Position numbers and translations under genes: made by a program. Positions 18,148 through 50,941 of a stretch of DNA of 64,000 nucleotides are shown here, piece by piece. The DNA comes from Rickettsia endosymbiont of Gonocerus acuteangulatus (GTDB lineage Bacteria; Pseudomonadota; Alphaproteobacteria; Rickettsiales; Rickettsiaceae). Positions within the stretch are counted from its first letter, which is position 1, and the number at the start of each line of letters is the position of its first letter. The stretch covers positions 1,550,001 through 1,614,000 of the forward strand of contig NZ_OZ032147.1 of assembly GCF_964026435.1 (NCBI RefSeq), read 5' to 3'. Below the pieces are notes generated by a model. That model worked only from the letters and a program-made list of their open reading frames with translations. It made no database searches and was not told the DNA's origin.

Positions 18148-18891
18148 TTATGCCATATTACCTCCAGATTTATAGTTATTAATACGATAACTTTTACCTT
18201 TTATGTTTAGTATATGAGCATGATGTACCACTCGATCAATAATTGCATGAGTTAATACTTCATCAGCAAATATTTCATTCCATTTTTCAAAATCCTTGTT
18301 TGTGGTAATAATGGTAGATTTATTTTCATATCGTTTAGCAATAATATTAAAAAAGTCTTCTACTGAATGTTTTGGCAATTGCTTAAACCCGAGCTCATCA
18401 AGAATTAATAAATCAAACGATAGGAGTAATTTAACCTTTTTGTGATAACTATTATCTGCTCTTGCAATATGTAAATTATAAAGCATATCCGATACCGTAG
18501 TAAAATATACAGAGTATTCTCGTGTTAAAGCTTTTAATGCTAGCCCAATGGCAAGATGAGTTTTCCCAGTTCCTGAATCACCTATGAATATTACATTTCC
18601 CTTAGTATTAATATAATCACAAGTTGATAAATCACTTATTACTTTGGCATCAACACTTGGTTGGAAATTAAAATCAAAGTCTTCTAAATTTTTAGTTACC
18701 GGCAATTTAGCAGCACTTTTACGGCGACGGTAATTATTATCCTTACGGTTAGATTTTTCATCTTCACATAATAGTGATAGAAATTCTTTAAATCCTAGTT
18801 TATTATTTTGAGCATAAATAATCCTTTCATTTAAACTATTGACTATACCTGATAATCTAAAGCTTCGTAGGTCATTAAATAAGTTCTGCAT
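18148..18891 (-). CDS. istB: IstB-like ATPase of IS-D
   Basis: IstB is the AAA+ helper that selects targets for IS21 transposition. Walker A is GDSGTGKTHLAIGLA (near residue 108) and Walker B is LLILDELGF. The frame is open from 18903 with a TTG, but the ATG at 18889-18891 is preceded by GGAGG at the right distance and is the better start, giving 247 residues. It overlaps the end of istA. Confidence 0.93.
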   Translation of the reverse strand: MQNLFNDLRSFRLSGIVNSLNERIIYAQNNKLGFKEFLSLLCEDEKSNRKDNNYRRRKSAAKLPVTKNLEDFDFNFQPSVDAKVISDLSTCDYINTKGNVIFIGDSGTGKTHLAIGLALKALTREYSVYFTTVSDMLYNLHIARADNSYHKKVKLLLSFDLLILDELGFKQLPKHSVEDFFNIIAKRYENKSTIITTNKDFEKWNEIFADEVLTHAIIDRVVHHAHILNIKGKSYRINNYKSGGNMA

Positions 18892-20296
18892 TATTACCTC
18901 CAAACTCTGGTAATGGTAAGTTTACTGCATTACTATTTAAAATATTCTTAATTTTAGAGTAAGAACTTATACCATAATGTAGTGCTCTATGACAGGCTTT
19001 ATCTATTAAGTCATCATTGTAAACCTTACGTAAAGAAATGATACCTCGTGCACAACGTTGCCAATCATTCACTCTTGTTTGTTGTAATGATTCTAATAAT
19101 AAACTGCAATTATTCCCTATCTGCTGCATTTGTTGTTGATAATGTTCACTATATTCTATAAAACCTGGGCATAGACGTTTGTATTTAGCATAATGAGACG
19201 GATTAGTGGTAAATATCCCCTTGCCCTCTGTTCTAACGTGTCTTGCTATTAAATCATTTTGTATAGAAAATATTTGAACAAGTTTTGGGGACAATTGTAC
19301 CATTACCTCACTGTATATATATTTTGCTGGTACAGAGTAATAATTATTATCTATGGTAATATGACAATCTTTTGCTACTTTTCGATTATGCCAAGATGAC
19401 AAATCAAAAGTTTCTAATGGTAAAGGAATCAAACTACTTCTTTCCTCTTGCTCAAACAGTTCTCTAGGTATTCTCTTAGTAGTACCATGTATTCGGCTAT
19501 TGGCCTTATTTAACCAATTTGCAAGACCATTTGTTAATTCTTCATATCTATCAAATTTACGACCAGCAAAAAAATTATTTTTAACGTATTTTATTCCCGA
19601 CTCAACTTTGCCTTTTTCTTGCGGTTGATACACTCGACAAGGAGAAAGTAAAATTCCATAATGATCGGCTAAGCACTTATATTCCTTCTGATATACTGGC
19701 TCATAAAAATTGGCATCTACTACTCCAGCTTTAAGATTATCAAGTTTTATTACTTTTGGACTACCAGCAAAATAATTAAATGCATTGATATGACATTGAA
19801 TCCATGTTTGACAACTTTGATCAAACACTACTTCATAATAATCAAGGCGACTATAGCTTAAACGCATATTAAATACATATGCTTTAACTCTACGCCCTTT
19901 AGAATTATACTGTAAGCCTATGTCACCAAAATCTACTTGTGCTTCCTCTCCTGCTAAAGTATGAAAACGAATGCAACTGTTATCCTTAATTTTATATTTT
20001 TTGATATAACGGGTCAAAGAAGTATAACTGCTTGTATAACCTTGATTTTTTAACTCCTCAAAAATTCTTATGTAACTCAGATTTTTTTCTAATAACTCAA
20101 TTATTTTTTCGTGCCAAAAATCCAAAACTGAAGATCGTTCATAGATTGCTGGGGATTCTGTACCAGCCTCTACATAGCGGTTTATTATTTTTCGTACTGT
20201 TTTGCGGTCTGTTCTTGTTAGTTTGGCAATATTCCTTTGACTATTGCCTTGTTTATAAAGGGTGATAATTGTTGTATACATATTTATTCTTATCAT
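18875..20296 (-). CDS. istA: IstA transposase of IS-D
   Basis: The 473-residue transposase has an N-terminal HTH (NSQRNIAKLTRTDRKTVRKI) and a DDE integrase core: Asp in EEAQVDFGDIG (about 120), Asp in VIKLDNLKAGV (about 182) and Glu in EKGKVESGIKYV (about 218). A C-terminal beta domain follows. A near-identical copy at 24.4 kb differs by one residue. It starts 127 bp from the element end and is intact. Confidence 0.94.
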   Translation of the reverse strand: MIRINMYTTIITLYKQGNSQRNIAKLTRTDRKTVRKIINRYVEAGTESPAIYERSSVLDFWHEKIIELLEKNLSYIRIFEELKNQGYTSSYTSLTRYIKKYKIKDNSCIRFHTLAGEEAQVDFGDIGLQYNSKGRRVKAYVFNMRLSYSRLDYYEVVFDQSCQTWIQCHINAFNYFAGSPKVIKLDNLKAGVVDANFYEPVYQKEYKCLADHYGILLSPCRVYQPQEKGKVESGIKYVKNNFFAGRKFDRYEELTNGLANWLNKANSRIHGTTKRIPRELFEQEERSSLIPLPLETFDLSSWHNRKVAKDCHITIDNNYYSVPAKYIYSEVMVQLSPKLVQIFSIQNDLIARHVRTEGKGIFTTNPSHYAKYKRLCPGFIEYSEHYQQQMQQIGNNCSLLLESLQQTRVNDWQRCARGIISLRKVYNDDLIDKACHRALHYGISSYSKIKNILNSNAVNLPLPEFGGNNAELI

Positions 20297-24303: not shown

Positions 24304-25832
24304 TGTCATTGCTAAAATAAAAGGGACCAGTAAATTGCACGAAAAAGGGACCAGAGAAGTTGGTGTGACCTAATAAGGTTAATGTGCAATATTCACTAGA
24401 TAATTAAGCAAGTAAATATCTAGTGATACAATGATAAGAATAAATATGTATACAACAATTATCACCCTTTATAAACAAGGCAATAGTCAAAGGAATATTG
24501 CCAAACTAACAAGAACAGACCGCAAAACAGTACGAAAAATAATAAACCGCTATGTAGAGGCTGGTACAGAATCCCCAGCAATCTATGAACGATCTTCAGT
24601 TTTGGATTTTTGGCACGAAAAAATAATTGAGTTATTAGAAAAAAATCTGAGTTACATAAGAATTTTTGAGGAGTTAAAAAATCAAGGTTATACAAGCAGT
24701 TATACTTCTTTGACCCGTTATATCAAAAAATATAAAATTAAGGATAACAGTTGCATTCGTTTTCATACTTTAGCAGGAGAGGAAGCACAAGTAGATTTTG
24801 GTGACATAGGCTTACAGTATAATTCTAAAGGGCGTAGAGTTAAAGCATATGTATTTAATATGCGTTTAAGCTATAGTCGCCTTGATTATTATGAAGTAGT
24901 GTTTGATCAAAGTTGTCAAACATGGATTCAATGTCATATCAATGCATTTAATTATTTTGCTGGTAGTCCAAAAGTAATAAAACTTGATAATCTTAAAGCT
25001 GGAGTAGTAGATGCCAATTTTTATGAGCCAGTATATCAGAAGGAATATAAGTGCTTAGCCGATCATTATGGAATTTTACTTTCTCCTTGTCGAGTGTATC
25101 AACCGCAAGAAAAAGGCAAAGTTGAGTCGGGAATAAAATACGTTAAAAATAATTTTTTTGCTGGTCGTAAATTTGATAGATATGAAGAATTAACAAATGG
25201 TCTTGCAAATTGGTTAAATAAGGCCAATAGCCGAATACATGGTACTACTAAGAGAATACCTAGAGAACTGTTTGAGCAAGAGGAAAGAAGTAGTTTGATT
25301 CCTTTACCATTAGAAACTTTTGATTTGTCATCTTGGCATAATCGAAAAGTAGCAAAAGATCGTCATATTACCATAGATAATAATTATTACTCTGTACCAG
25401 CAAAATATATATACAGTGAGGTAATGGTACAATTGTCCCCAAAACTTGTTCAAATATTTTCTATACAAAATGATTTAATAGCAAGACACGTTAGAACAGA
25501 GGGCAAGGGGATATTTACCACTAATCCGTCTCATTATGCTAAATACAAACGTCTATGCCCAGGTTTTATAGAATATAGTGAACATTATCAACAACAAATG
25601 CAGCAGATAGGGAATAATTGCAGTTTATTATTAGAATCATTACAACAAACAAGAGTGAATGATTGGCAACGTTGTGCACGAGGTATCATTTCTTTACGTA
25701 AGGTTTACAATGATGACTTAATAGATAAAGCCTGTCATAGAGCACTACATTATGGTATAAGTTCTTACTCTAAAATTAAGAATATTTTAAATAGTAATGC
25801 AGTAAACTTACCATTACCAGAGTTTGGAGGTA
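24304..25832 (+). mobile_element. IS-D (IS21 family), copy 2, truncated
   Basis: The left end (tgtcattgctaaaataaaaggg) is intact and lies in IS-A. The element stops at the istA/istB junction, where IS-E begins. istB and the right end are missing, so a deletion between IS copies probably took place. Confidence 0.87.
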
Positions 25833-25981
25833 ATAAAAGTAATCCCCGCCGCAAGCAAGCGGGGTATTTTAGAAGAAAGCTAGCTGATGATCCTCATGCA
25901 GTTTCTGATATTCCTTGCCTTGGTTTTTTACGTATTTTCCTATCATATTCTCATTTCCATGCTTACCTACCGTACTCGTAA
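24431..25981 (+). pseudogene. istA: IstA transposase of truncated IS-D, reading into IS-E
   Basis: The first 467 residues match the intact IstA at 18875-20296 (one Cys to Arg change in KDRHITID). The last few natural codons are lost and the frame runs 49 codons into IS-E. The catalytic core is whole, but istB and one element end are missing. Confidence 0.85.
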
Positions 25982-37477: not shown

Positions 37478-38543
37478 TGAAAATACTATAAGTAAGTAGA
37501 ACAAAACTTATTTAAAATAATAAGATTTTAAATAGGTAATGATGAACAGAAAATATAGACACTTATCTCGCGAAGAGAGATATGAAATAAAAAGAATGTA
37601 TGACCTAGGAGTCAGTATTAACAAGATAGCACAACATCTTACGAGGTCTAAAAGCACTATTAGTATGGAGCTAAAAAGAAATAAAGTAAAAGGTAAGTAT
37701 ATGCCTTGTGTTGCTCAGGAACAATATAAAAAAAGGATGCATCAGCAAGAGTTATTAAAAATAGAGAAGTTACCTATTTTGTTAAATTATATCAAAAATG
37801 CTATGATTCACAAGAAATGGTCACCGGATGCTATAGCCGGAAAGTTAAAACTGGACAAAAATACAGCTTGTTGTATCAGTACAGAAAGTATATATAGATT
37901 TGTCTACACTTCTCCAGTTGCAGCTAAATTAAAGTTATATAGCTATTTACCGTCTAAAAGATATAAAAGGCAAGAAAGGGGGACAAGGCATCAAAGGATC
38001 ATTATACCACAAAGGATCTCAATACATCAGCGTGATGCAATAGCAATGCAAAAGCTAGAAGTAGGGCATTTTGAGGCAGATCTTACATTTCATAAAGGTA
38101 ATCAAAGTATGAATATCGGTGTGCTGGTGGATAAAAAGAGTCAAAAGATTATTTTAGTGCTGAATAACTCCAAAAGAGCTAAAACAGTTACCACTGGGTT
38201 TTTAAAAAAGATCAAAACGCTGCCAAGTAGTGTTAGAAAGACTATTACTATGGATAATGGCAAAGAGTTTGTAGGGCATCTTGCTTATAGACTATCTGGG
38301 TTTCAAACTTTCTTTTGTGATCCATACCGCCCTAGACAAAAAGCACTAGTGGAGAAAATGAATTCTATGATTCATAGAATTTTACCTAAAAATACAGATA
38401 TTACAACCGTTACACAAAGAGGTCTTGACAATATTGCTGAGATTTTAAATAACATGCCAAGAAAGATTTTTGGTTATAAAACCCCCAATGAAATTTGGGC
38501 AGAAAATTTATAGGTTTTGTTCTACTTAGTCCTTGAATTTTCA
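37478..38543 (+). mobile_element. IS-C (IS30 family), complete copy
   Basis: 1066-bp copy with related ends tgaaaatactataagtaag and (inverse) tgaaaattcaaggactaag. No clear short target duplication is visible, so the flanks may have been rearranged. Confidence 0.87.
37539..38513 (+). CDS. IS30-family transposase (IS-C), intact
   Basis: The 324-residue protein has an N-terminal HTH region (LSREERYEIKRMYDLGVSINKIAQHLTRSKSTISMELKRN) and a C-terminal DDE core: Asp in FEADLTFHKGN (about 184), Asp in TITMDNGKEF (about 244), and Glu in RQKALVEKMNSMIHR (about 278). This layout is typical of IS30. It is intact, in contrast to the copy at 22.8 kb. Confidence 0.93.
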   Translation: MMNRKYRHLSREERYEIKRMYDLGVSINKIAQHLTRSKSTISMELKRNKVKGKYMPCVAQEQYKKRMHQQELLKIEKLPILLNYIKNAMIHKKWSPDAIAGKLKLDKNTACCISTESIYRFVYTSPVAAKLKLYSYLPSKRYKRQERGTRHQRIIIPQRISIHQRDAIAMQKLEVGHFEADLTFHKGNQSMNIGVLVDKKSQKIILVLNNSKRAKTVTTGFLKKIKTLPSSVRKTITMDNGKEFVGHLAYRLSGFQTFFCDPYRPRQKALVEKMNSMIHRILPKNTDITTVTQRGLDNIAEILNNMPRKIFGYKTPNEIWAENL

Positions 38544-39461: not shown

Positions 39462-40787
39462 GAGTCTTTCTAATTAAGTGTGTAAATTTTTCATAGGGCT
39501 TAAATTCTACCTTCAAATTTTATCAAAAAGTGAGCCATAGCTGCGTTCCAGTTTGGAATCGGCATAGCCCATTTCTTGGTCATATAATCAATTGCCAAAT
39601 ATAAGGTCTTAAAAACGGCATTATCATTTGGAAAAACCCGTTTATTCTTGGTAACCTTACGTAATTGGCTATTGACAGATTCTACACTATTTGTTGTGTA
39701 TATTACTTTCCTTATCGCCTCAGGGTATCCTAGAAAAACCATTAAATTTTCCCAATGAACATACCAAGATTTAGCAATTTGTGGATACTGTTTACTCCAT
39801 TTAGCTTCAAAAGATTCTAAAGCAAGATGTGCTTCTTCCTCTGTGCTAGCAGTATAAATAGGCTTTAAATCAGCCGCTAATTCTTTTCGGTCTTTATATG
39901 ATACATATTTTAAACTATTTCTAATCTGATGTACAATACATAATTGATGTTCGGTTTTCGGAAAAACTGCCTCTATCGCCTCAGACATACCGGTTAAATT
40001 ATCACTGCAAGCAATAAGCATGTCTTGCATACCTCTGTTCTTCATCTCAGTAAAATTACCAAGCCAAAATTTTGCTCCTTCATTTTCACTGATCCACAAT
40101 CCTAAAATATCCTTCCTGCCAGATAAATCAATACCTAATGCTACATATACAGACTTATTGATAATTCGTTTATCTTGACGTACTTTTACTACTAAACAGT
40201 CAAAAAATACTATAGCATATACTCGATCCAATGGTCGGCTTTGCCATATCTTGACATCCTCAATTACATCATCAGTAATTTGACTTATCAAACTTTCGCT
40301 AACGTCAGCTCCATACAATTCTTGCATTTGAATCTTAATATCAGATAAGCTCATTCCTTTAGCGTATAACGATATTATTTTATCATCAAATCCTTCAATA
40401 CGTCTTTGACGCTTTGGAATTAATGCAGGTTCAAATGTACTACTTCTATCCCTTGGAACCTCAATCTCTATAACTCCATTATTTGTTACTAGATTCTTTA
40501 CATTCTTACCATTACGAACATTATCACTATCAGTATGACAATATTTATCATATCCTAAGTGATTATTCATCTCTGACTGCAATGCCTTCTCTACAAGCCG
40601 TTTGGTTAATTGCTTTAATAAACCATCCTCTTTAAGTAATGTTGATATATCTGTATCATTATTTATTAATAAATCTATCGCTTGATTCATTGCTTCATTT
40701 TGTTTTTGGTGCATATAATTTCTCCTTTTGTTATATTATATTTTTATATAACCTTTGAGAAATTCCCACACTTATTTGGACAGAGCC
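39462..40787 (-). mobile_element. IS-H (IS256 family), complete copy
   Basis: 1326-bp element flanked by an exact 8-bp duplication cataaaaa (39454-39461 and 40788-40795), the IS256 hallmark. Imperfect terminal repeats (gagtctttctaattaagtg / ggctctgtccaaataagtg). Intact transposase. Confidence 0.94.
39500..40714 (-). CDS. IS256/Mutator-type transposase
   Basis: The 404-residue protein shows the family pattern: N-terminal LLINNDTDISTLLKEDGLLKQLTKRLVEKALQSEMNNHLGYD; GIEIEVPRDR-like VIEIEVPRDRSSTFEP; Asp in YAIVFFDCLVVKVR; ALGIDLSGRKDILGLWISENEG; Asp in LIACSDNLTGMSEAI; and Glu in TNSVESVNSQLRK. It is intact and the only IS256 copy seen in the window. Confidence 0.95.
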   Translation of the reverse strand: MHQKQNEAMNQAIDLLINNDTDISTLLKEDGLLKQLTKRLVEKALQSEMNNHLGYDKYCHTDSDNVRNGKNVKNLVTNNGVIEIEVPRDRSSTFEPALIPKRQRRIEGFDDKIISLYAKGMSLSDIKIQMQELYGADVSESLISQITDDVIEDVKIWQSRPLDRVYAIVFFDCLVVKVRQDKRIINKSVYVALGIDLSGRKDILGLWISENEGAKFWLGNFTEMKNRGMQDMLIACSDNLTGMSEAIEAVFPKTEHQLCIVHQIRNSLKYVSYKDRKELAADLKPIYTASTEEEAHLALESFEAKWSKQYPQIAKSWYVHWENLMVFLGYPEAIRKVIYTTNSVESVNSQLRKVTKNKRVFPNDNAVFKTLYLAIDYMTKKWAMPIPNWNAAMAHFLIKFEGRI

Positions 40788-45935: not shown

Positions 45936-46877
45936 ATGAATGATAAACTAATACAACTTTGCGATCCGGCAAAATTTGAATATTTGATTAATAATGCACC
46001 TAATAATACACTAAGCAGTACTCAAATACAGAATGCAGTGTGTTCTGAAAAAGATTACGGTATTCACACATTTTTTGCTAACACATGCGGCGTAATAGCA
46101 GAAAAGATTCCTGTTTTAGCAGAAGGCTTATATCGATGCACAATTGATTCAGCATCAATAATTAGTTCATTTAAAGAAATGCCATGTAATCCAATACGAT
46201 GGAATCCTACTGCCTTAGTGAACAAATTTTGTTCTACAGTTGATAATAATATTGGATCTTTTAATACTACTACTCTTACAACAGAAACACCTCTTTGGGA
46301 TAGCACCACTTCAACAGAAGATCCTAATAATGGCACAAACATCATTAAATTAATAGGAGTAGGAGCAGCCGCTACTATTGCTATAGGTGGAATGATTTAT
46401 ACAGGGTATAAATATTTTAAAAGCTCAAAAAGCACTCCAAAGAACACTGCTAATACAGAATTAGAGCTTAGCTCCTGCGAAGAAGATATAGAAAGTGCTT
46501 CTAATTTACTAAAACTAACATTTAGTATGCGTGAAGATTTTGAGGCAGCGGGAATTAGGATTAGTGCCTTTAACAGTCAAGAAGATAAAGAAAGCACTTC
46601 TCCTTTACTACCAAAGTTAAAAGAAAGTAATACATCTACAGAATCGCATTATGACATACCTACATCTAATAGACCTGTTACTGGTATTTATGAAGAAATT
46701 GGTCAAAAAATTGAAACTTCTAATCTACTAGATACAGATCGGAAAGTTACAGATAGGCTTAATGATTTAGTGGATGAGCTTAAACTTACAGATATAGTAA
46801 TTTCATCTAATGATTATACAGTTTCAAATAATGAACCGGATTTATTAGGTGATGTACCGTTATTGAATATAGTATAA
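45936..46877 (+). CDS. Unknown one-TM protein with phosphotyrosine-like motifs
   Basis: 313 residues: a Cys-containing N-terminal domain (1-100), a Thr-rich linker (TTTLTTETPLWDSTTSTED, about 110-130), one strong transmembrane helix (about 136-155, IIKLIGVGAAATIAIGGMIY) and an acidic, Ser/Thr-rich tail. The tail contains SHYDIP (237-242) and TGIYEEIGQ (249-257), which resemble the short tyrosine motifs (EPIYA-like, YxxP, IYEEI) that host kinases phosphorylate in several bacterial effectors. No signal peptide. The family is not recognised; an effector role is inference. Confidence 0.7.
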   Translation: MNDKLIQLCDPAKFEYLINNAPNNTLSSTQIQNAVCSEKDYGIHTFFANTCGVIAEKIPVLAEGLYRCTIDSASIISSFKEMPCNPIRWNPTALVNKFCSTVDNNIGSFNTTTLTTETPLWDSTTSTEDPNNGTNIIKLIGVGAAATIAIGGMIYTGYKYFKSSKSTPKNTANTELELSSCEEDIESASNLLKLTFSMREDFEAAGIRISAFNSQEDKESTSPLLPKLKESNTSTESHYDIPTSNRPVTGIYEEIGQKIETSNLLDTDRKVTDRLNDLVDELKLTDIVISSNDYTVSNNEPDLLGDVPLLNIV

Positions 46878-46939: not shown

Positions 46940-47859
46940 CAATAGTTTTAAAAATATAATATTTCTATTGACTTTTATACTAATATAATTAAAATCGATT
47001 ATTTAAAATTTAAAAATAATTAATAATGATTACAAGTTTCTGTGCAAGTAATGAAAATATTAGATTAAATTTAGAGAAATTAACTTGGGCTGACGTTAGA
47101 GAAGAGTTATATAAGGTTAACCCAGAATTAACTAAAAAATGTGATTATATTAATAAGTTTAATAAATATCCTGTATATAAATTAAAATATGCATACGGGT
47201 TATCAATTATTCACGAAGGGGAATTTTATCTCCCAACTTTGGATGGCAAAACGATTTCTATAAATGATATAAGAATTCCTGAATCTTTAAAACAAAGTTT
47301 AGCATATTCTTCTCTTCCTTTAGCTTGTATTATTAATAACTCTTGTGAAGTTTTTATCCAAGAAGAACAAAGAATAATACCACTTAACTTTCTTGAAACA
47401 GGTGAATTATTTGGTTTATTTGAGTTAATGTGTTCACTTCCACAAACTTCTATAGTACATAAGACTATTTGGAATGTATCAGCTGGTGCACATTCCGTAT
47501 TTATGCTACCAAGTGTTTCTAATGTAATAAATTATCGCAGGATTTATAAAAAATTTAATATAAATGACTGTTTATCCAAAGATTTTAATGATCAACATTG
47601 GTCAATATTTTGCAATATTAATAATAGCAATAAACAAAATACTTGGAAAACTACAATTTTAGTATTTTCAAAAGAATGGTTTGAACACCAAAATAACATA
47701 GCGTATATTGAACTTTATAAGTATTTAGTTAACAGGTGCTGGGAGCAATTACAATTATTAAAAGAGTTTAGTGGATATAGTAAATTATGGTTATTATTTA
47801 CACGTGCAATTAATAAACGTAATATCAAACCTAGAACATATATAATTGATACTGTTAAA

Positions 47860-48384
47860 ATAAAAGTAATCCCCGCCGCAAGCAGCGGGGTATTTTAGAA
47901 GAAAGCTAGCTGATGATCCTCATGCAGTTTCTGATATTCCTTGCCTTGGTTTTTTACGTATTTTCCTATCATATTCTCATTTCCATGCTTACCTACCGTA
48001 CTCGTAAAATATCCATCAGTCCAAAATTCTCCACCCCATAATTGTTTCTTTACCTGTGGACACTGTCTAAATATTTGACGAGCTGTAACACTTTTAATTG
48101 TTGTTACTATTTTTGTTACGCTATAGGTTGGTACAGATTGTACCAAAAAATGGACATGATCTTCATCAACCCCTATTTCTAAAAATTTTATTTGATATCT
48201 CTTTTCTATCTCTAAACATATTTCTCGTAATACTTGATCAACTGATACGTCAAACACTGCTCGGCGATATTTTGCTGGAAATACCATGTGATACAGCAGT
48301 ACCGTAACATTATGACTTTTATGTATATATTTGCTCATTCCGCCATATTACGCCGCAAGCGGCGGGGAATATACCCAAAAGAGA
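47860..48384 (-). mobile_element. IS-E (IS200/IS605), copy 3
   Basis: 525-bp intact copy with hairpin ends. On the transposase strand it follows ATTAAA. There is no target duplication, and removing it restores the host reading frame exactly, which fixes its boundaries. Confidence 0.93.
47895..48338 (-). CDS. tnpA: IS200-type transposase TnpA
   Basis: 147-residue Y1 HUH transposase with DEDHVHFLVQ and a C-terminal Tyr helix, identical in sequence to the 25.9-kb copy. It acts on single-stranded DNA at the element's terminal hairpins. It is intact and could in principle excise this copy. Confidence 0.94.
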   Translation of the reverse strand: MSKYIHKSHNVTVLLYHMVFPAKYRRAVFDVSVDQVLREICLEIEKRYQIKFLEIGVDEDHVHFLVQSVPTYSVTKIVTTIKSVTARQIFRQCPQVKKQLWGGEFWTDGYFTSTVGKHGNENMIGKYVKNQGKEYQKLHEDHQLAFF

Positions 48385-48875
48385 TTTAATTTCAATTACT
48401 CAAGGGCTGGGGGTAGCATTTGTCCTTCAATAGATGATAAGGCTCTACCAAAAAACTTAATTCAGCAAGTATATATAAAAGATTATAATTTAAAAAATTA
48501 TATTCCAAATATAATGCAACCAGCGAAGTTTATCAAAGGTGGTAAACTATATTATTCCCTTAGCGTGCCTACTATATCTAATAGCTCTTCTCATTGTAAT
48601 AATCCTCCTAGTATAATAGAAGATCAAAGAAATATTAAAAATTTATTAAATATTTTAATGGAGGTAATTTATGATAAAAAAAATAGATTAAATTCTGATT
48701 TAGAAAATATAAAATTTGAGTATTTTCATTCTCATATTGACGAGTTCCAGCAAATTGTTTCTAGTAGTATAATACCAGAAACTGATCCTAGATTTTTAAA
48801 GTATAATAATGATTATAAAGATAATAGGGTATTTTGTGCTTCATCTAGTTTTTTTAAAGGATGTATTAGGATATC

Positions 48876-50171
48876 ATGAATAAATATGTTTTACCTACAT
48901 TACAAGCTATAGTAGAAAAAGTTCGTGCCTATCATAACTTTAATTTAGAAAAAATAACATTTGTTTGCGTACAACATCTTGTATTTACAACGGTAGATTT
49001 AATAGAATCTTTAATCATTCTTGGTGCAAAACCAAAAAATATTCACATTATGGGTAAAATTTACTCTACATGTTCTAAAGTAGAAGAACGAATTATTCAA
49101 ATGGGTGTAGTATATCACGCTAGTTCATATCCACAACAACTCGGATGTTTTAAAGATCATTTTAATTATGATATAAAAAATATGTGGGATAAAATTAGTA
49201 CTAATTTTGTGACTCCATATATAATTGTTCTTGATGATGGAGGACATTGTATAACGAATATCCCTAAATATTTAAGTAATAATTATAAAATTTATACTAT
49301 AGAGCAAACATCATCAGGTATTTCTCAAGTTAAAAACAATATTTTTAACCTTATTAACGTCGCTTATTCTTGTGCAAAACAATTTTTAGAATCACCAATG
49401 ATTGCTAAAATAGTTATAGAAAAATTAAAAAAAATTATTCCATTAAATTCTAAAAATATTATATATGGAATAGTAGGATGTGGAGTAATAGGAAGTAGTA
49501 TTATCCAGGAACTATTATCAACTAATCAACGCATAGTAGTATACGATAAAAACATACATAAAATACCACCTCTTGATTTTATTGAAACTACTAATGATAT
49601 ACAACTATTGTTTCAAAAAGCAAATTTTATCTTTGGTTGTACAGGTACAAATATTACTACATCGCTTGATTTGCATAAACTATCTGGTGTTAAATATTTG
49701 ATAAGCTGCTCATCACAAGATACCGAATTTAATTCTTTATTAAAATATATACAAAAGAATTATCCCCACAAGAACTTAAATACTCTAAGAGAAATTGAGT
49801 GTCCAATAAAAGAAGGATATATTAAAATATTAAAAGGGGGATACCCTATAAATTTTGATAATTCTGGTAAGTCTGTGCCATTTAAATATATCCAGCTTAC
49901 TCGTGGATTATTACTTGGTGGAGTTATTCAAGCAACAACTCAATTAATGAAAAATTATACTTTCACTCCTCAAATAGAGATGTTACACCCTAAAATACAG
50001 CAGTTAGTAGTACAAACATTACTCAACAACTTAGAAGAAACTATTGATTTTAACAACATATTATTACCTTATGTAAATTCAATAAAAAATTTTCTCAATG
50101 AAGAATTTTTAAAAGAAAATTCTAGAGGTCAATATATCGATAATAATATTATTAATAACATATTTAGCTAA
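48876..50171 (+). CDS. S-adenosylhomocysteine hydrolase-like NAD-binding protein
   Basis: The 431-residue protein has an N-terminal domain with VLDDGGHCITNIPKYL (118-133), then EQTSSGI (143-149), then a Rossmann loop GIVGCGVIGSS (198-208) and a later FGCTGTNI (253-260). These parallel DDGG, EETTTG, GYGDVGKG and TGCIDI of S-adenosylhomocysteine hydrolase, in the same order and spacing, but sequence is divergent and the C-terminal family tail is not clear. It overlaps the preceding gene by 4 bp and precedes a SAM methyltransferase gene by 17 bp. A role in handling SAH or a related nucleoside product is inferred. Confidence 0.7.
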   Translation: MNKYVLPTLQAIVEKVRAYHNFNLEKITFVCVQHLVFTTVDLIESLIILGAKPKNIHIMGKIYSTCSKVEERIIQMGVVYHASSYPQQLGCFKDHFNYDIKNMWDKISTNFVTPYIIVLDDGGHCITNIPKYLSNNYKIYTIEQTSSGISQVKNNIFNLINVAYSCAKQFLESPMIAKIVIEKLKKIIPLNSKNIIYGIVGCGVIGSSIIQELLSTNQRIVVYDKNIHKIPPLDFIETTNDIQLLFQKANFIFGCTGTNITTSLDLHKLSGVKYLISCSSQDTEFNSLLKYIQKNYPHKNLNTLREIECPIKEGYIKILKGGYPINFDNSGKSVPFKYIQLTRGLLLGGVIQATTQLMKNYTFTPQIEMLHPKIQQLVVQTLLNNLEETIDFNNILLPYVNSIKNFLNEEFLKENSRGQYIDNNIINNIFS

Positions 50172-50188
50172 ACTCAAAATTATTTATA

Positions 50189-50941
50189 ATGGAAAGTTGG
50201 AAATTAAAAAATATTAATGAATCTTATAAAAAAACTGCTAAGTTTAGGAATAACAATTATATTATTAATCCTCATATTATAAATCTTATAGGAAATATAA
50301 AAGACAAAACCGTATTAGATGTAGGTTGTGGATTTGGTAGATATTTAAAAATCCTTTTAAAAGATAATCCTTCAAAATTAGTAGGGTGTGATATTTCCAA
50401 GCATTAAATACAATTATGTAAAAATACTATCAACAGCGATAATATAGAATATTTTATCATAGATTTTTCTGATACCACCGCTCCTTTAATTATAGGAGAA
50501 AATAAATATGATATTGTTTATACTGTATTTGTGATATTATACGTGGAAACTCTCGATAAGCTGAAAATATTTATTGATAATTGTTATAAATGTCTAAAGA
50601 AACAAGGAAGAATTATAATATGTACTTTAGATATTTTAAGTGCTTCACTTTACCCAGAAGTCTTTGATATATTGAAGCTTCCTGTAAAAGCTTTAGTTAA
50701 CAATAATAAGTATAGCGATGGCTGCTCAATACAAATAGAAATTACAAAAAATTGCATTGTAACCTCCTATCAAAGAAATTTTGAAACCATAAAACAATTA
50801 ATGAAACAAGTAGGTTTTAATAATATTAGAAAACATAATTTATTTTTAGATGAAATTAGTCTACAAGCTTTTACAAATAGAGAGCTAGATATAATAAAAA
50901 AATCTAATATATTTTTATTATTAGAAGCTCAAAAATTATAG
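50189..50941 (+). pseudogene. Class I SAM methyltransferase with an in-frame stop
   Basis: The N-terminal part (50189-50407) includes motif I, VLDVGCGFGRYLKILL, and ends ...GCDISKH. A TAA at 50405-50407 (CAA in the likely ancestor) interrupts, and the same frame continues IQLCKNTINSDNIEYFIIDFSD...YDIVYTVFVILYVETLDKLKIF...LKKQGRIIICTLD to 50941. The restored protein is 250 residues. It is the last gene of the cluster. The substrate is unknown. One nonsense change is the only lesion, so decay is recent. Confidence 0.8.

What the first reader, a model, noticed from the sequence alone, without database searches (positions are those of the whole stretch)
47026..50941. Accessory cluster: unknown 442-residue protein, SAH-hydrolase-like protein and SAM methyltransferase
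Three genes are linked by 4-bp and 17-bp spacings. The middle protein shows the motif order of S-adenosylhomocysteine hydrolase (DDGG, EQT..G, GCGVIG, GCTG) but is divergent. The last is a SAM methyltransferase. The first has no recognised domain. Together they suggest a methylation module that also handles its own by-product or a related nucleoside. The first and third genes are broken by one IS and one stop only, so it was probably functional recently.
Basis: partly seen in the sequence, partly recalled or inferred. Interest (0 to 1): 0.75.

Follow-up and report, generated by a model that had tools for sequence, protein, structure and literature searches.

The report
Degraded rickettsial SAH-hydrolase-like metabolite module
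A damaged three-gene cluster in a Rickettsia carries one still-open gene of an apparently undescribed, widespread enzyme family that looks like the methylation-recycling enzyme SAH hydrolase but has lost the parts that recognise its substrate, and whose relatives sit beside signal receptors and importers, so it may make or change an unknown small signal or nutrient molecule.

Summary
The trio is real. Gene A (47026-48879) is split by an IS200-type element, gene B (48876-50171) is open, and gene C (SAM methyltransferase) has one in-frame stop. An intact trio exists in the Rickettsia of Oxypoda opaca. By sequence B is not an SAH hydrolase. It has the fold, the NAD motif and part of the redox core (SAHH positions H55, D131, T157, K186 in 31 of 31 relatives; D190 always Glu), but the adenine contacts and the second catalytic His (Ser in 31 of 31) are gone. 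B proteins form a clade apart from AHCY, in several bacterial phyla and one archaeal record. In one branch B goes with A (20 of 42 loci; fused once; with an ECF-type importer operon in three phyla). In another it lies near sensor kinases, in two genomes with a homologue of the regulator in PDB 6sy9 (LqsR, recalled), or near EamA transporters. A may have a cyclic-nucleotide-binding-like barrel (weak). Best reading: an NAD-dependent enzyme acting on a non-adenosine ribosyl-type small molecule in a mobile metabolite or signal module, decaying here: A is interrupted in 5 of 10 genomes of this family that carry it, B in none. Substrate and function are inferred.

The parts
47026..47868 (+). gene A, 5' part (about profile positions 3-274 of the A family)
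   Evidence: no Pfam match; intact orthologues in L057, L059, L060, L061, L062, L064, L070
47869..48372. IS200-type insertion (extent as used; exact ends not determined)
   Evidence: 40 of 40 scored matches elsewhere in the own genome are 100% identical over 504 bases
47895..48338 (-). Y1 (IS200-like) transposase, 147 aa
   Evidence: PF01797 E 2.8e-39
48415..48879 (+). gene A, 3' part (profile positions about 283-437)
   Evidence: overlaps the start of B by 4 bp
48876..50171 (+). gene B, 431-aa SAHH-superfamily protein, intact frame
50189..50407 (+). gene C, SAM methyltransferase, 5' part up to the in-frame TAA
   Evidence: Methyltransf_25 E 3e-5, 25.1 bits against a cut-off of 27
50408..50941 (+). 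gene C, part after the stop
   Evidence: frame shown; ORF 50531-50941 matches the intact C of L002 and L011

Best explanation
B belongs to an apparently undescribed subfamily of the SAH-hydrolase superfamily. It most likely binds NAD and oxidises a ring hydroxyl of a ribose-like substrate, as SAH hydrolase does at C3', but acts on a small molecule that is not adenosine or SAH. Shown: predicted fold, NAD motif, and retention of SAHH positions H55, D131, T157 and K186 with D190 replaced by Glu. Shown: loss of the adenine contacts and of the second catalytic His. Inferred: NAD-dependent redox chemistry (epimerisation or a partial SAHH-type reaction) on a nucleoside- or ribosyl-type metabolite. 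A, with a possible cyclic-nucleotide-binding-like barrel, would be a cytosolic binding or regulatory partner (inferred). C would methylate the product or substrate (inferred). In three other bacteria the A-B pair comes with ECF-type importer genes, so there the molecule is probably taken up. In the sister branch B lies near sensor kinases, so there the molecule or its product is probably sensed. In this Rickettsia the module is being lost: A is cut by a young IS, C is stopped, and only B is still open.
For: Fold and ancestry: PDB profile best E 4.7e-19; model pLDDT 88.1, pTM 0.90; Foldseek 3x2f E 5.0e-17, TM 0.68/0.72. Active site, 31 B members against 10 true AHCY from fetched loci: H55, D131, T157, K186 31/31; D190 to E 31/31; H301 to S 31/31; E156 to Q 30/31; N181 to A 29/31; T57 kept 0/31; E59 1/31; H353 0/31 (this last column lies in a loop and its alignment is unsure). 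Separate clade from AHCY, 100/100, branch 3.29. Context (42 loci, labels within 4 kb): A at 20; methyltransferase at 12 of the 15 loci of the core A-B group; sensor kinase at 6 (L052, L115 and L116 are near-copies) plus one B-kinase fusion read by eye (L066); EamA transporter at 4. ECF-type S, T and ATPase genes, then A, then B in one order in an alphaproteobacterium (L082), Dyadobacter (L068) and Verrucomicrobiales (L078, A-B fused). Precedent: AgmF, annotated as SAH hydrolase, does not use SAH and is an NAD-dependent nucleoside dehydratase (PMC8599513, passages).
Against: No substrate is known and no activity has been measured. The loss of the second His, essential in AgmF (H299A inactive), argues against complete SAHH- or AgmF-type elimination chemistry and leaves a non-enzymatic role open. 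A's barrel rests on a weak Foldseek signal (best E 0.026, none below 0.001; model pLDDT 67.3, pTM 0.58) and weak profile-profile scores (probability 1.0 and 3.5; control 0.5). A interrupted in 5 of 10 genomes while B is open in 10 of 10 argues against B needing A there. Methyltransferases are common genes and are of at least two distant families here. No ECF genes were recognised beside the rickettsial copies, though their neighbours were not all scanned; an ABC-ATPase-like frame follows B in L004/L011 (by eye). ECF labels are partly weak: Pfam matched the S component of L068 only, under its cut-off, and nothing in the S and T of L082. Most relatives are MAG records, where misbinning is possible.
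Confidence: 0.5

Rival explanations
1. One reading: B is a divergent but real SAH hydrolase that clears the SAH made by methyltransferase C.
For: SAHH fold and motifs; C next to B; a methyltransferase at 12 of the 15 core A-B loci; no canonical SAHH (PF05221) and no PF01048 nucleosidase/phosphorylase match in the genome, so a clearing need could exist.
Against: Adenine contacts lost (T57 0/31, E59 1/31, H353 0/31) and H301 to Ser 31/31. NCBIfam ahcY scores 26.4 bits on the intact orthologue against a cut-off of 497.6. At many B loci none of my methyltransferase references matched (not an exhaustive scan).
Confidence: 0.1
2. B is a signal synthase: it makes a diffusible autoinducer-like molecule sensed by a nearby membrane kinase, as in lqs/cqs loci, and the A-B branch is an intracellular version with A as receptor.
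For: B, kinase, response regulator in this order in G075 (L013) and G095 (L050). The L013 regulator matches PDB 6sy9 over residues 4-325, E 1.1e-55 (that 6sy9 is LqsR is recalled). Its Asp motif at residues 102-107 lies where LqsR has its receiver (residues 80-160, D108, PMC3376566, passages). B and a kinase also in G065, G122 and on two IMG/VR contigs, and fused in L066. In lqs/cqs loci a synthase gene stands beside the kinase.
Against: Only part of the family has kinases; similar kinase-regulator pairs occur without B on plasmids; three of the six cases are near-copies; no kinase label within 4 kb of the A-B copies and no such regulator in the 10 A-bearing genomes or in G065. Similarity of the kinases to LqsS was not tested; two match LuxN by the kinase part only. 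Whether the genomes also hold a true LqsA was not tested.
Confidence: 0.2
3. B is a non-catalytic NAD-binding regulatory or sensor protein, like the AHCYL proteins, and A-B is a redox or metabolite sensor.
For: Best PDB profile hit is the SAHH-like protein 3mtg; apparent fusion to PAS and histidine kinase parts in L066 (by eye); loss of one catalytic His.
Against: Lys, Glu, Asp and His of the redox core are invariant in 31 of 31 members, which is unusual for a dead enzyme; ECF, EamA and methyltransferase neighbours fit metabolism.
Confidence: 0.15

Closest known systems
S-adenosylhomocysteine hydrolase (AhcY/SAHH)
   Same: Fold, domain order, NAD motif GxGxxG, DDGG, E-x-T-x-x-G, Lys and acidic residue of the redox core
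   Different: Adenine contacts lost, second catalytic His is Ser, D190 is Glu, E156 is Gln, far below the family score cut-off; separate clade
AgmF, angustmycin dehydratase (SAHH-like, PMC8599513)
   Same: SAHH-like protein that acts on a nucleoside other than SAH with bound NAD; its pathway also uses a phosphoribosyltransferase and a phosphatase, and the Streptomyces B locus has PRTase and HAD genes
   Different: AgmF needs both His (H56, H299) and Asp188; B has Ser and Glu at the matching SAHH positions; AgmF itself was not aligned here
AHCYL-type SAHH-like proteins
   Same: Closest solved structures by profile (3mtg, 3gvp)
   Different: Human proteins; their regulatory role is recalled; no comparable gene neighbourhood
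Lqs/Cqs quorum-sensing loci
   Same: In two Rickettsiales genomes B precedes a LuxN-like kinase and a homologue of the 6sy9 regulator, the place of a synthase
   Different: The synthase in lqs/cqs is a PLP enzyme; the window's own trio has no kinase label
CRP/cyclic-nucleotide-binding fold (for A)
   Same: The 50 Foldseek rows shown for A are, by title or recalled family, CNB or CRP/FNR proteins
   Different: No PF00027 match, no conserved phosphate-site Glu/Arg seen; weak scores

Membership tests
SAH hydrolase (AhcY) | Overall fold and homology | tested here: met
SAH hydrolase (AhcY) | NAD motif (GxGxxG and an acidic residue after it) | tested here: met
   G 31/31, 31/31, 30/31; acidic residue D 30/31 instead of E
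SAH hydrolase (AhcY) | Redox core H55, D131, K186, D190 | tested here: inconclusive
   H, D, K 31/31; D190 is Glu 31/31
SAH hydrolase (AhcY) | Second catalytic His (H301) | tested here: not met
   Ser in 31/31
SAH hydrolase (AhcY) | Adenine contacts T57, E59, H353 | tested here: not met
   0/31, 1/31, 0/31; roles of the positions recalled; H353 column unsure
SAH hydrolase (AhcY) | Curated family score | tested here: not met
   NCBIfam ahcY 26.4 bits vs 497.6 for the orthologue in L002; PF05221 finds nothing in the own genome at 0.001, B included
SAH hydrolase (AhcY) | Hydrolysis of SAH | not testable with these tools
   needs an enzyme assay
AgmF-type dehydratase | Essential residues H56, D129, K184, D188, H299 | tested here: not met
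   residues from passages; at the matching SAHH positions the second His is Ser and Asp188 is Glu in B; AgmF not aligned
Lqs/Cqs quorum-sensing locus (sister branch of B, not the window) | Sensor kinase plus LqsR-type regulator next to a synthase | tested here: inconclusive
   kinase and regulator present in G075 and G095; synthase activity of B unknown; LqsA absence and LqsS likeness not tested
CNB/CRP-fold proteins (gene A) | Fold | tested here: inconclusive
   the 50 Foldseek rows shown (of 356) are CNB/CRP-type by title or recalled family, but best E 0.026; hhalign weak
CNB/CRP-fold proteins (gene A) | PF00027 profile match | tested here: not met
   none at E 1 for the window pieces, at 0.5 for the L002, L049 and L055 copies, or at 0.01 for the L118 copy
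Class I SAM methyltransferase (gene C) | Family match | tested here: met
   window piece Methyltransf_25 E 3e-5, just under its cut-off; intact orthologue UbiG model E 9.8e-13, under that model's cut-off

The most novel reading that the evidence does not exclude
The B family is a new class of small-signal enzyme derived from SAH hydrolase. It makes or converts a nucleoside-type messenger that is read by membrane kinases with LqsR-type regulators in some Rickettsiales and by kinases on phage-like contigs, and by the A protein after ECF uptake in Alphaproteobacteria, Bacteroidota and Verrucomicrobia: an undescribed cell-cell or host-cell signalling system that reaches obligate intracellular bacteria.
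Probability: 0.15. Interest if true: 0.85.

Novelty: new variant of a known kind. Interest (0 to 1): 0.6.

Why it matters
B defines a coherent SAHH-derived family with its own active-site signature, in records labelled Alpha- and Gammaproteobacteria, Chlamydiota, Bacteroidota, Acidobacteria, Verrucomicrobia, Planctomycetes, Streptomyces, candidate phyla and one archaeon. Members lie near importers, sensor kinases and methyltransferases. If it works on a shared small molecule, it would give a handle on how reduced intracellular bacteria sense or use an external metabolite. In the two annotated plasmid records it is called hypothetical protein or NAD(P)-dependent oxidoreductase, so its kinship is easily missed.

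Tried and rejected
A scan of genome contigs with the window B alone found no relative. tblastn of the L002 copy of B in phages: no match; first viral scan, with the same copy: no relative; the second, with A4, gave two contigs. A against the PDB by sequence: none. Idea that the A-B loci hide a small precursor peptide: not supported; of 430 small frames in 18 loci, the cross-locus matches lie by their coordinates inside or across the ends of A, B, C, methyltransferase, kinase or regulator genes, save one 16-aa match upstream of A between L061 and L062. CNB phosphate-site motif test: of little value, since the control CNB set itself mostly lacks it (full motif 1 of 11; A 1 of 19, and that one outside the site). 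Only 11 of 30 CNB loci yielded a usable domain. Ter-type nucleoside clusters for the Streptomyces locus were considered from memory and not pursued. In the listings of ten paper searches (open PMC text only) I saw no description of this family or pair.
Full report
What is there. The window lies in a 1.98-Mb genome (G000:C1:1550001-1614000). Gene A is cut by an IS200-type element, gene B is open, gene C carries one TAA. A and B overlap by 4 bp, B and C are 17 bp apart. The element is young: 40 of 40 scored matches elsewhere in the genome are identical over 504 bases (258 candidates). dN/dS against the copy in L057 is 0.19/0.19 (A pieces), 0.23 (B), 0.25/0.17 (C pieces). The order is A-B-C here and in L057, and C-A-B in four relatives (L045, L046, L058, L059).

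Distribution in the order. B was searched in 261 genomes of the order: 59 match at 1e-6. I count 16 as B family by score (E below 1e-40). Of the other 43, ten were looked at and have the canonical AHCY residues (picked by a GHFD motif); 33 were not looked at one by one. A was searched in the same number of genomes (261): 10 carry it, and these are the 10 genomes of the window's family that carry B; the six other B carriers have no A. In those 10, A is interrupted by stop, frameshift or insertion in 5 (G000, G059, G182, G217, G236; in G236 only the first 38 positions are out of frame, in a MAG) and whole in 5 (G015, G025, G165, G176, G274). B is open in all 10. Wider: 3 of 385 genomes of the class at E 1e-25, own included; 1 of 398 of the phylum, the own genome, at E 1e-30 for B and at 1e-5 for A.

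Wider family. A pattern scan of the genome-contig collection gave 26 confirmed matches, 25 loci, among 72 candidate stretches: Rickettsia, other Alphaproteobacteria, Gammaproteobacteria, Dyadobacter, Acidobacteriaceae, Verrucomicrobiales, a Planctomycete, Chlamydiota, Patescibacteria and a Pacearchaeote (record titles; most are MAGs). Plasmid search added Simkania negevensis pSn and a Streptomyces plasmid. Two IMG/VR contigs carry B 3 bp before a kinase gene.

What B is. Profile search of the PDB puts B on SAH hydrolases (3mtg, E 4.7e-19). The model of the window protein (pLDDT 88.1, pTM 0.90) matches 3x2f at E 5.0e-17. I aligned 31 B proteins with 10 AHCY from fetched loci (human numbering and residue roles recalled, several roles supported by the AgmF passages). 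Kept: H55, D131, T157, K186 (31/31). Changed always: D190 to Glu, H301 to Ser. Changed nearly always: E156 to Gln (30/31), N181 to Ala (29/31). Adenine contacts are gone (T57 0/31, E59 1/31, H353 0/31, the last column unsure). So B is a superfamily member, not an SAH hydrolase by its sequence; activity is untested. The own genome has no PF05221 hit (not even B) and no PF01048 hit (the controls rang in 9 and 13 of 14 genomes).

Tree and neighbours. In a tree of 37 B and 10 AHCY proteins B is apart from AHCY (100/100). It has a branch of 20 with all A-linked members, L066 and the two W-type loci (94/91), and a branch of 15 without A (93/97); Streptomyces and G621 lie outside both on long branches. 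Supports of these two branches fall short of the star mark, and long branches make deep joins unsure. Census of 42 B loci (labels within 4 kb from my own reference set and A and B profiles): A at 20; in L065 and L066 the contig ends too close to B to tell. In the core A-B group of 15 (ten genomes of the window's family, four alpha MAGs, gamma L067) a methyltransferase lies close at 12: family C at 9, another family (MT2) at 3; none labelled at L010, L048 and L067. Kinases lie near B at 6 loci (L012, L013, L050, L052, L115, L116; L052, L115 and L116 are near-copies). L066 reads as a B-PAS-kinase-receiver fusion (B part by profile; the rest by eye). EamA transporters lie within 4 kb at 4 Chlamydiota loci. 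At 8 loci nothing was labelled (L065, L066, L069, L074, L075, L076, L079, L083); by Pfam L079 has an SNF symporter upstream and L074 a methyltransferase frame. Neighbours were not all scanned with Pfam, so missing labels are not proof of absence.

ECF operon. In L082 (alphaproteobacterium G283), L068 (Dyadobacter) and L078 (Verrucomicrobiales) three genes before A-B read as ECF S, T and ATPase. The S components match NF045596 at 93-118 bits, under the 180 cut-off; the ATPases of L068 and L082 match TIGR04521 at 1.9e-37 and 4.9e-35. The three genes of L078 match those of L068. Pfam matches the S of L068 only weakly (PF12822 E 0.0022) and those of L082 and L078 not at all. The T of L068 matches CbiQ weakly; that of L082 matches nothing and rests on position and hydrophobicity by eye. 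In L078 A and B are one frame of 832 aa.

Kinase branch. The regulator after the kinase in L013 matches PDB 6sy9 over residues 4-325 of 329, E 1.1e-55. That 6sy9 is LqsR is recalled; the Asp motif of the query (102-107) lies in the region given for the LqsR receiver (80-160, D108; PMC3376566, passages). The L050 regulator is its homologue (1.9e-107). Such regulators are in 3 of 14 B-bearing genomes tested (G075, G095, G122), not in G065 and in none of the 10 A-bearing ones. The L013 and L050 kinases match LuxN by their kinase part only; a simple hydropathy count gives four or five spans before the kinase part in L012, L013 and L050, three in L116, none in the L052 fragment. Similar kinase-regulator pairs without B exist on plasmids.

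What A is. No Pfam, NCBIfam or PDB sequence match of note. The model of the intact L057 protein is moderate (pLDDT 67.3, pTM 0.58, N-terminal part better). The guess of a CNB-like barrel was noted before the search. The 50 Foldseek rows shown, of 356, are CNB- or CRP-type by title or recalled family (one, SLC9C1, by recall only), best E 0.026, none below 0.001. Profile-profile comparison with 11 CNB domains put the expected stretch together but at probabilities of 1.0 and 3.5 (B control 0.5). I hold the barrel as likely, not shown. The phosphate-site Glu and Arg are not seen in the aligned stretch of 19 A proteins (by eye).

A elsewhere. Eight Legionella plasmid records carry A; six were read. 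In five A precedes ATP-grasp, ThiS, ThiF, YcaO and TfuA genes (families checked for pLLO). In L. israelensis it faces a TP_methylase (E 2.4e-12), a 64-aa frame and an MFS transporter. No B in these stretches (only the ThiF frames matched, weakly), and tblastn of B over all plasmids found Simkania and Streptomyces only. So A is not bound to B.

Reading. The sure part is anatomy and family. That B carries out SAHH-like redox chemistry on another ribosyl-type molecule follows from the kept core and the lost adenine site, with AgmF as printed precedent. Neighbours for uptake (ECF, EamA) and sensing (kinases) fit a small external molecule. B staying open in 10 of 10 genomes while A is interrupted in 5 suggests that B can work without A. 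Function, substrate and the role of C are inferred.

Papers: PMC8599513 and PMC3376566 were seen as passages; all others only in search listings.

Noticed in passing
L118-L122 (Legionella plasmids), e.g. L118 5888-11818: Gene A homologue heads an ATP-grasp/ThiS/ThiF/YcaO/TfuA cluster on conjugative plasmids: looks like thioamide or RiPP-type biosynthesis; I saw no obvious precursor.
   Followed up: partly
L117 8956-12504 (Legionella israelensis plasmid): A faces a TP_methylase gene, a 64-aa frame and an MFS transporter; the layout recalls split borosin pathways (recalled, not tested).
   Followed up: no
L066 75-3854: One long frame reads as B followed by PAS, histidine kinase and receiver parts (by eye), a B-sensor fusion.
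   Followed up: partly
L115, L116 (IMG/VR contigs): B and a kinase, 3 bp apart, on phage-like contigs with an integrase-like frame; L115 also has a GroEL-like frame at its edge (both by eye).
   Followed up: partly
L053 7679-11836, L054 7771-9186: A 460-aa protein without a clear Pfam match, three in tandem in L053 and one in L054, overlaps the end of B; an alternative partner of B.
   Followed up: no
L077 1405-2487: A second, shorter SAHH-like frame (AdoHcyase_NAD E 1.5e-7) overlaps the start of B.
   Followed up: no
L081 (record title 'Chlamydia trachomatis isolate ME-21oct19-74'): A MAG whose species label is probably wrong (judged by the loose kinship of its B to Simkania B only).
   Followed up: no
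window 18875-20296, 24431-25981, 37539-38513, 39500-40714: The window is rich in transposases: two with Mu-type domains, one HTH_38/rve, one Mutator type.
   Followed up: partly
window 45936-46877: 313-aa frame upstream of A with no Pfam match; not seen beside A in the relatives by eye.
   Followed up: no
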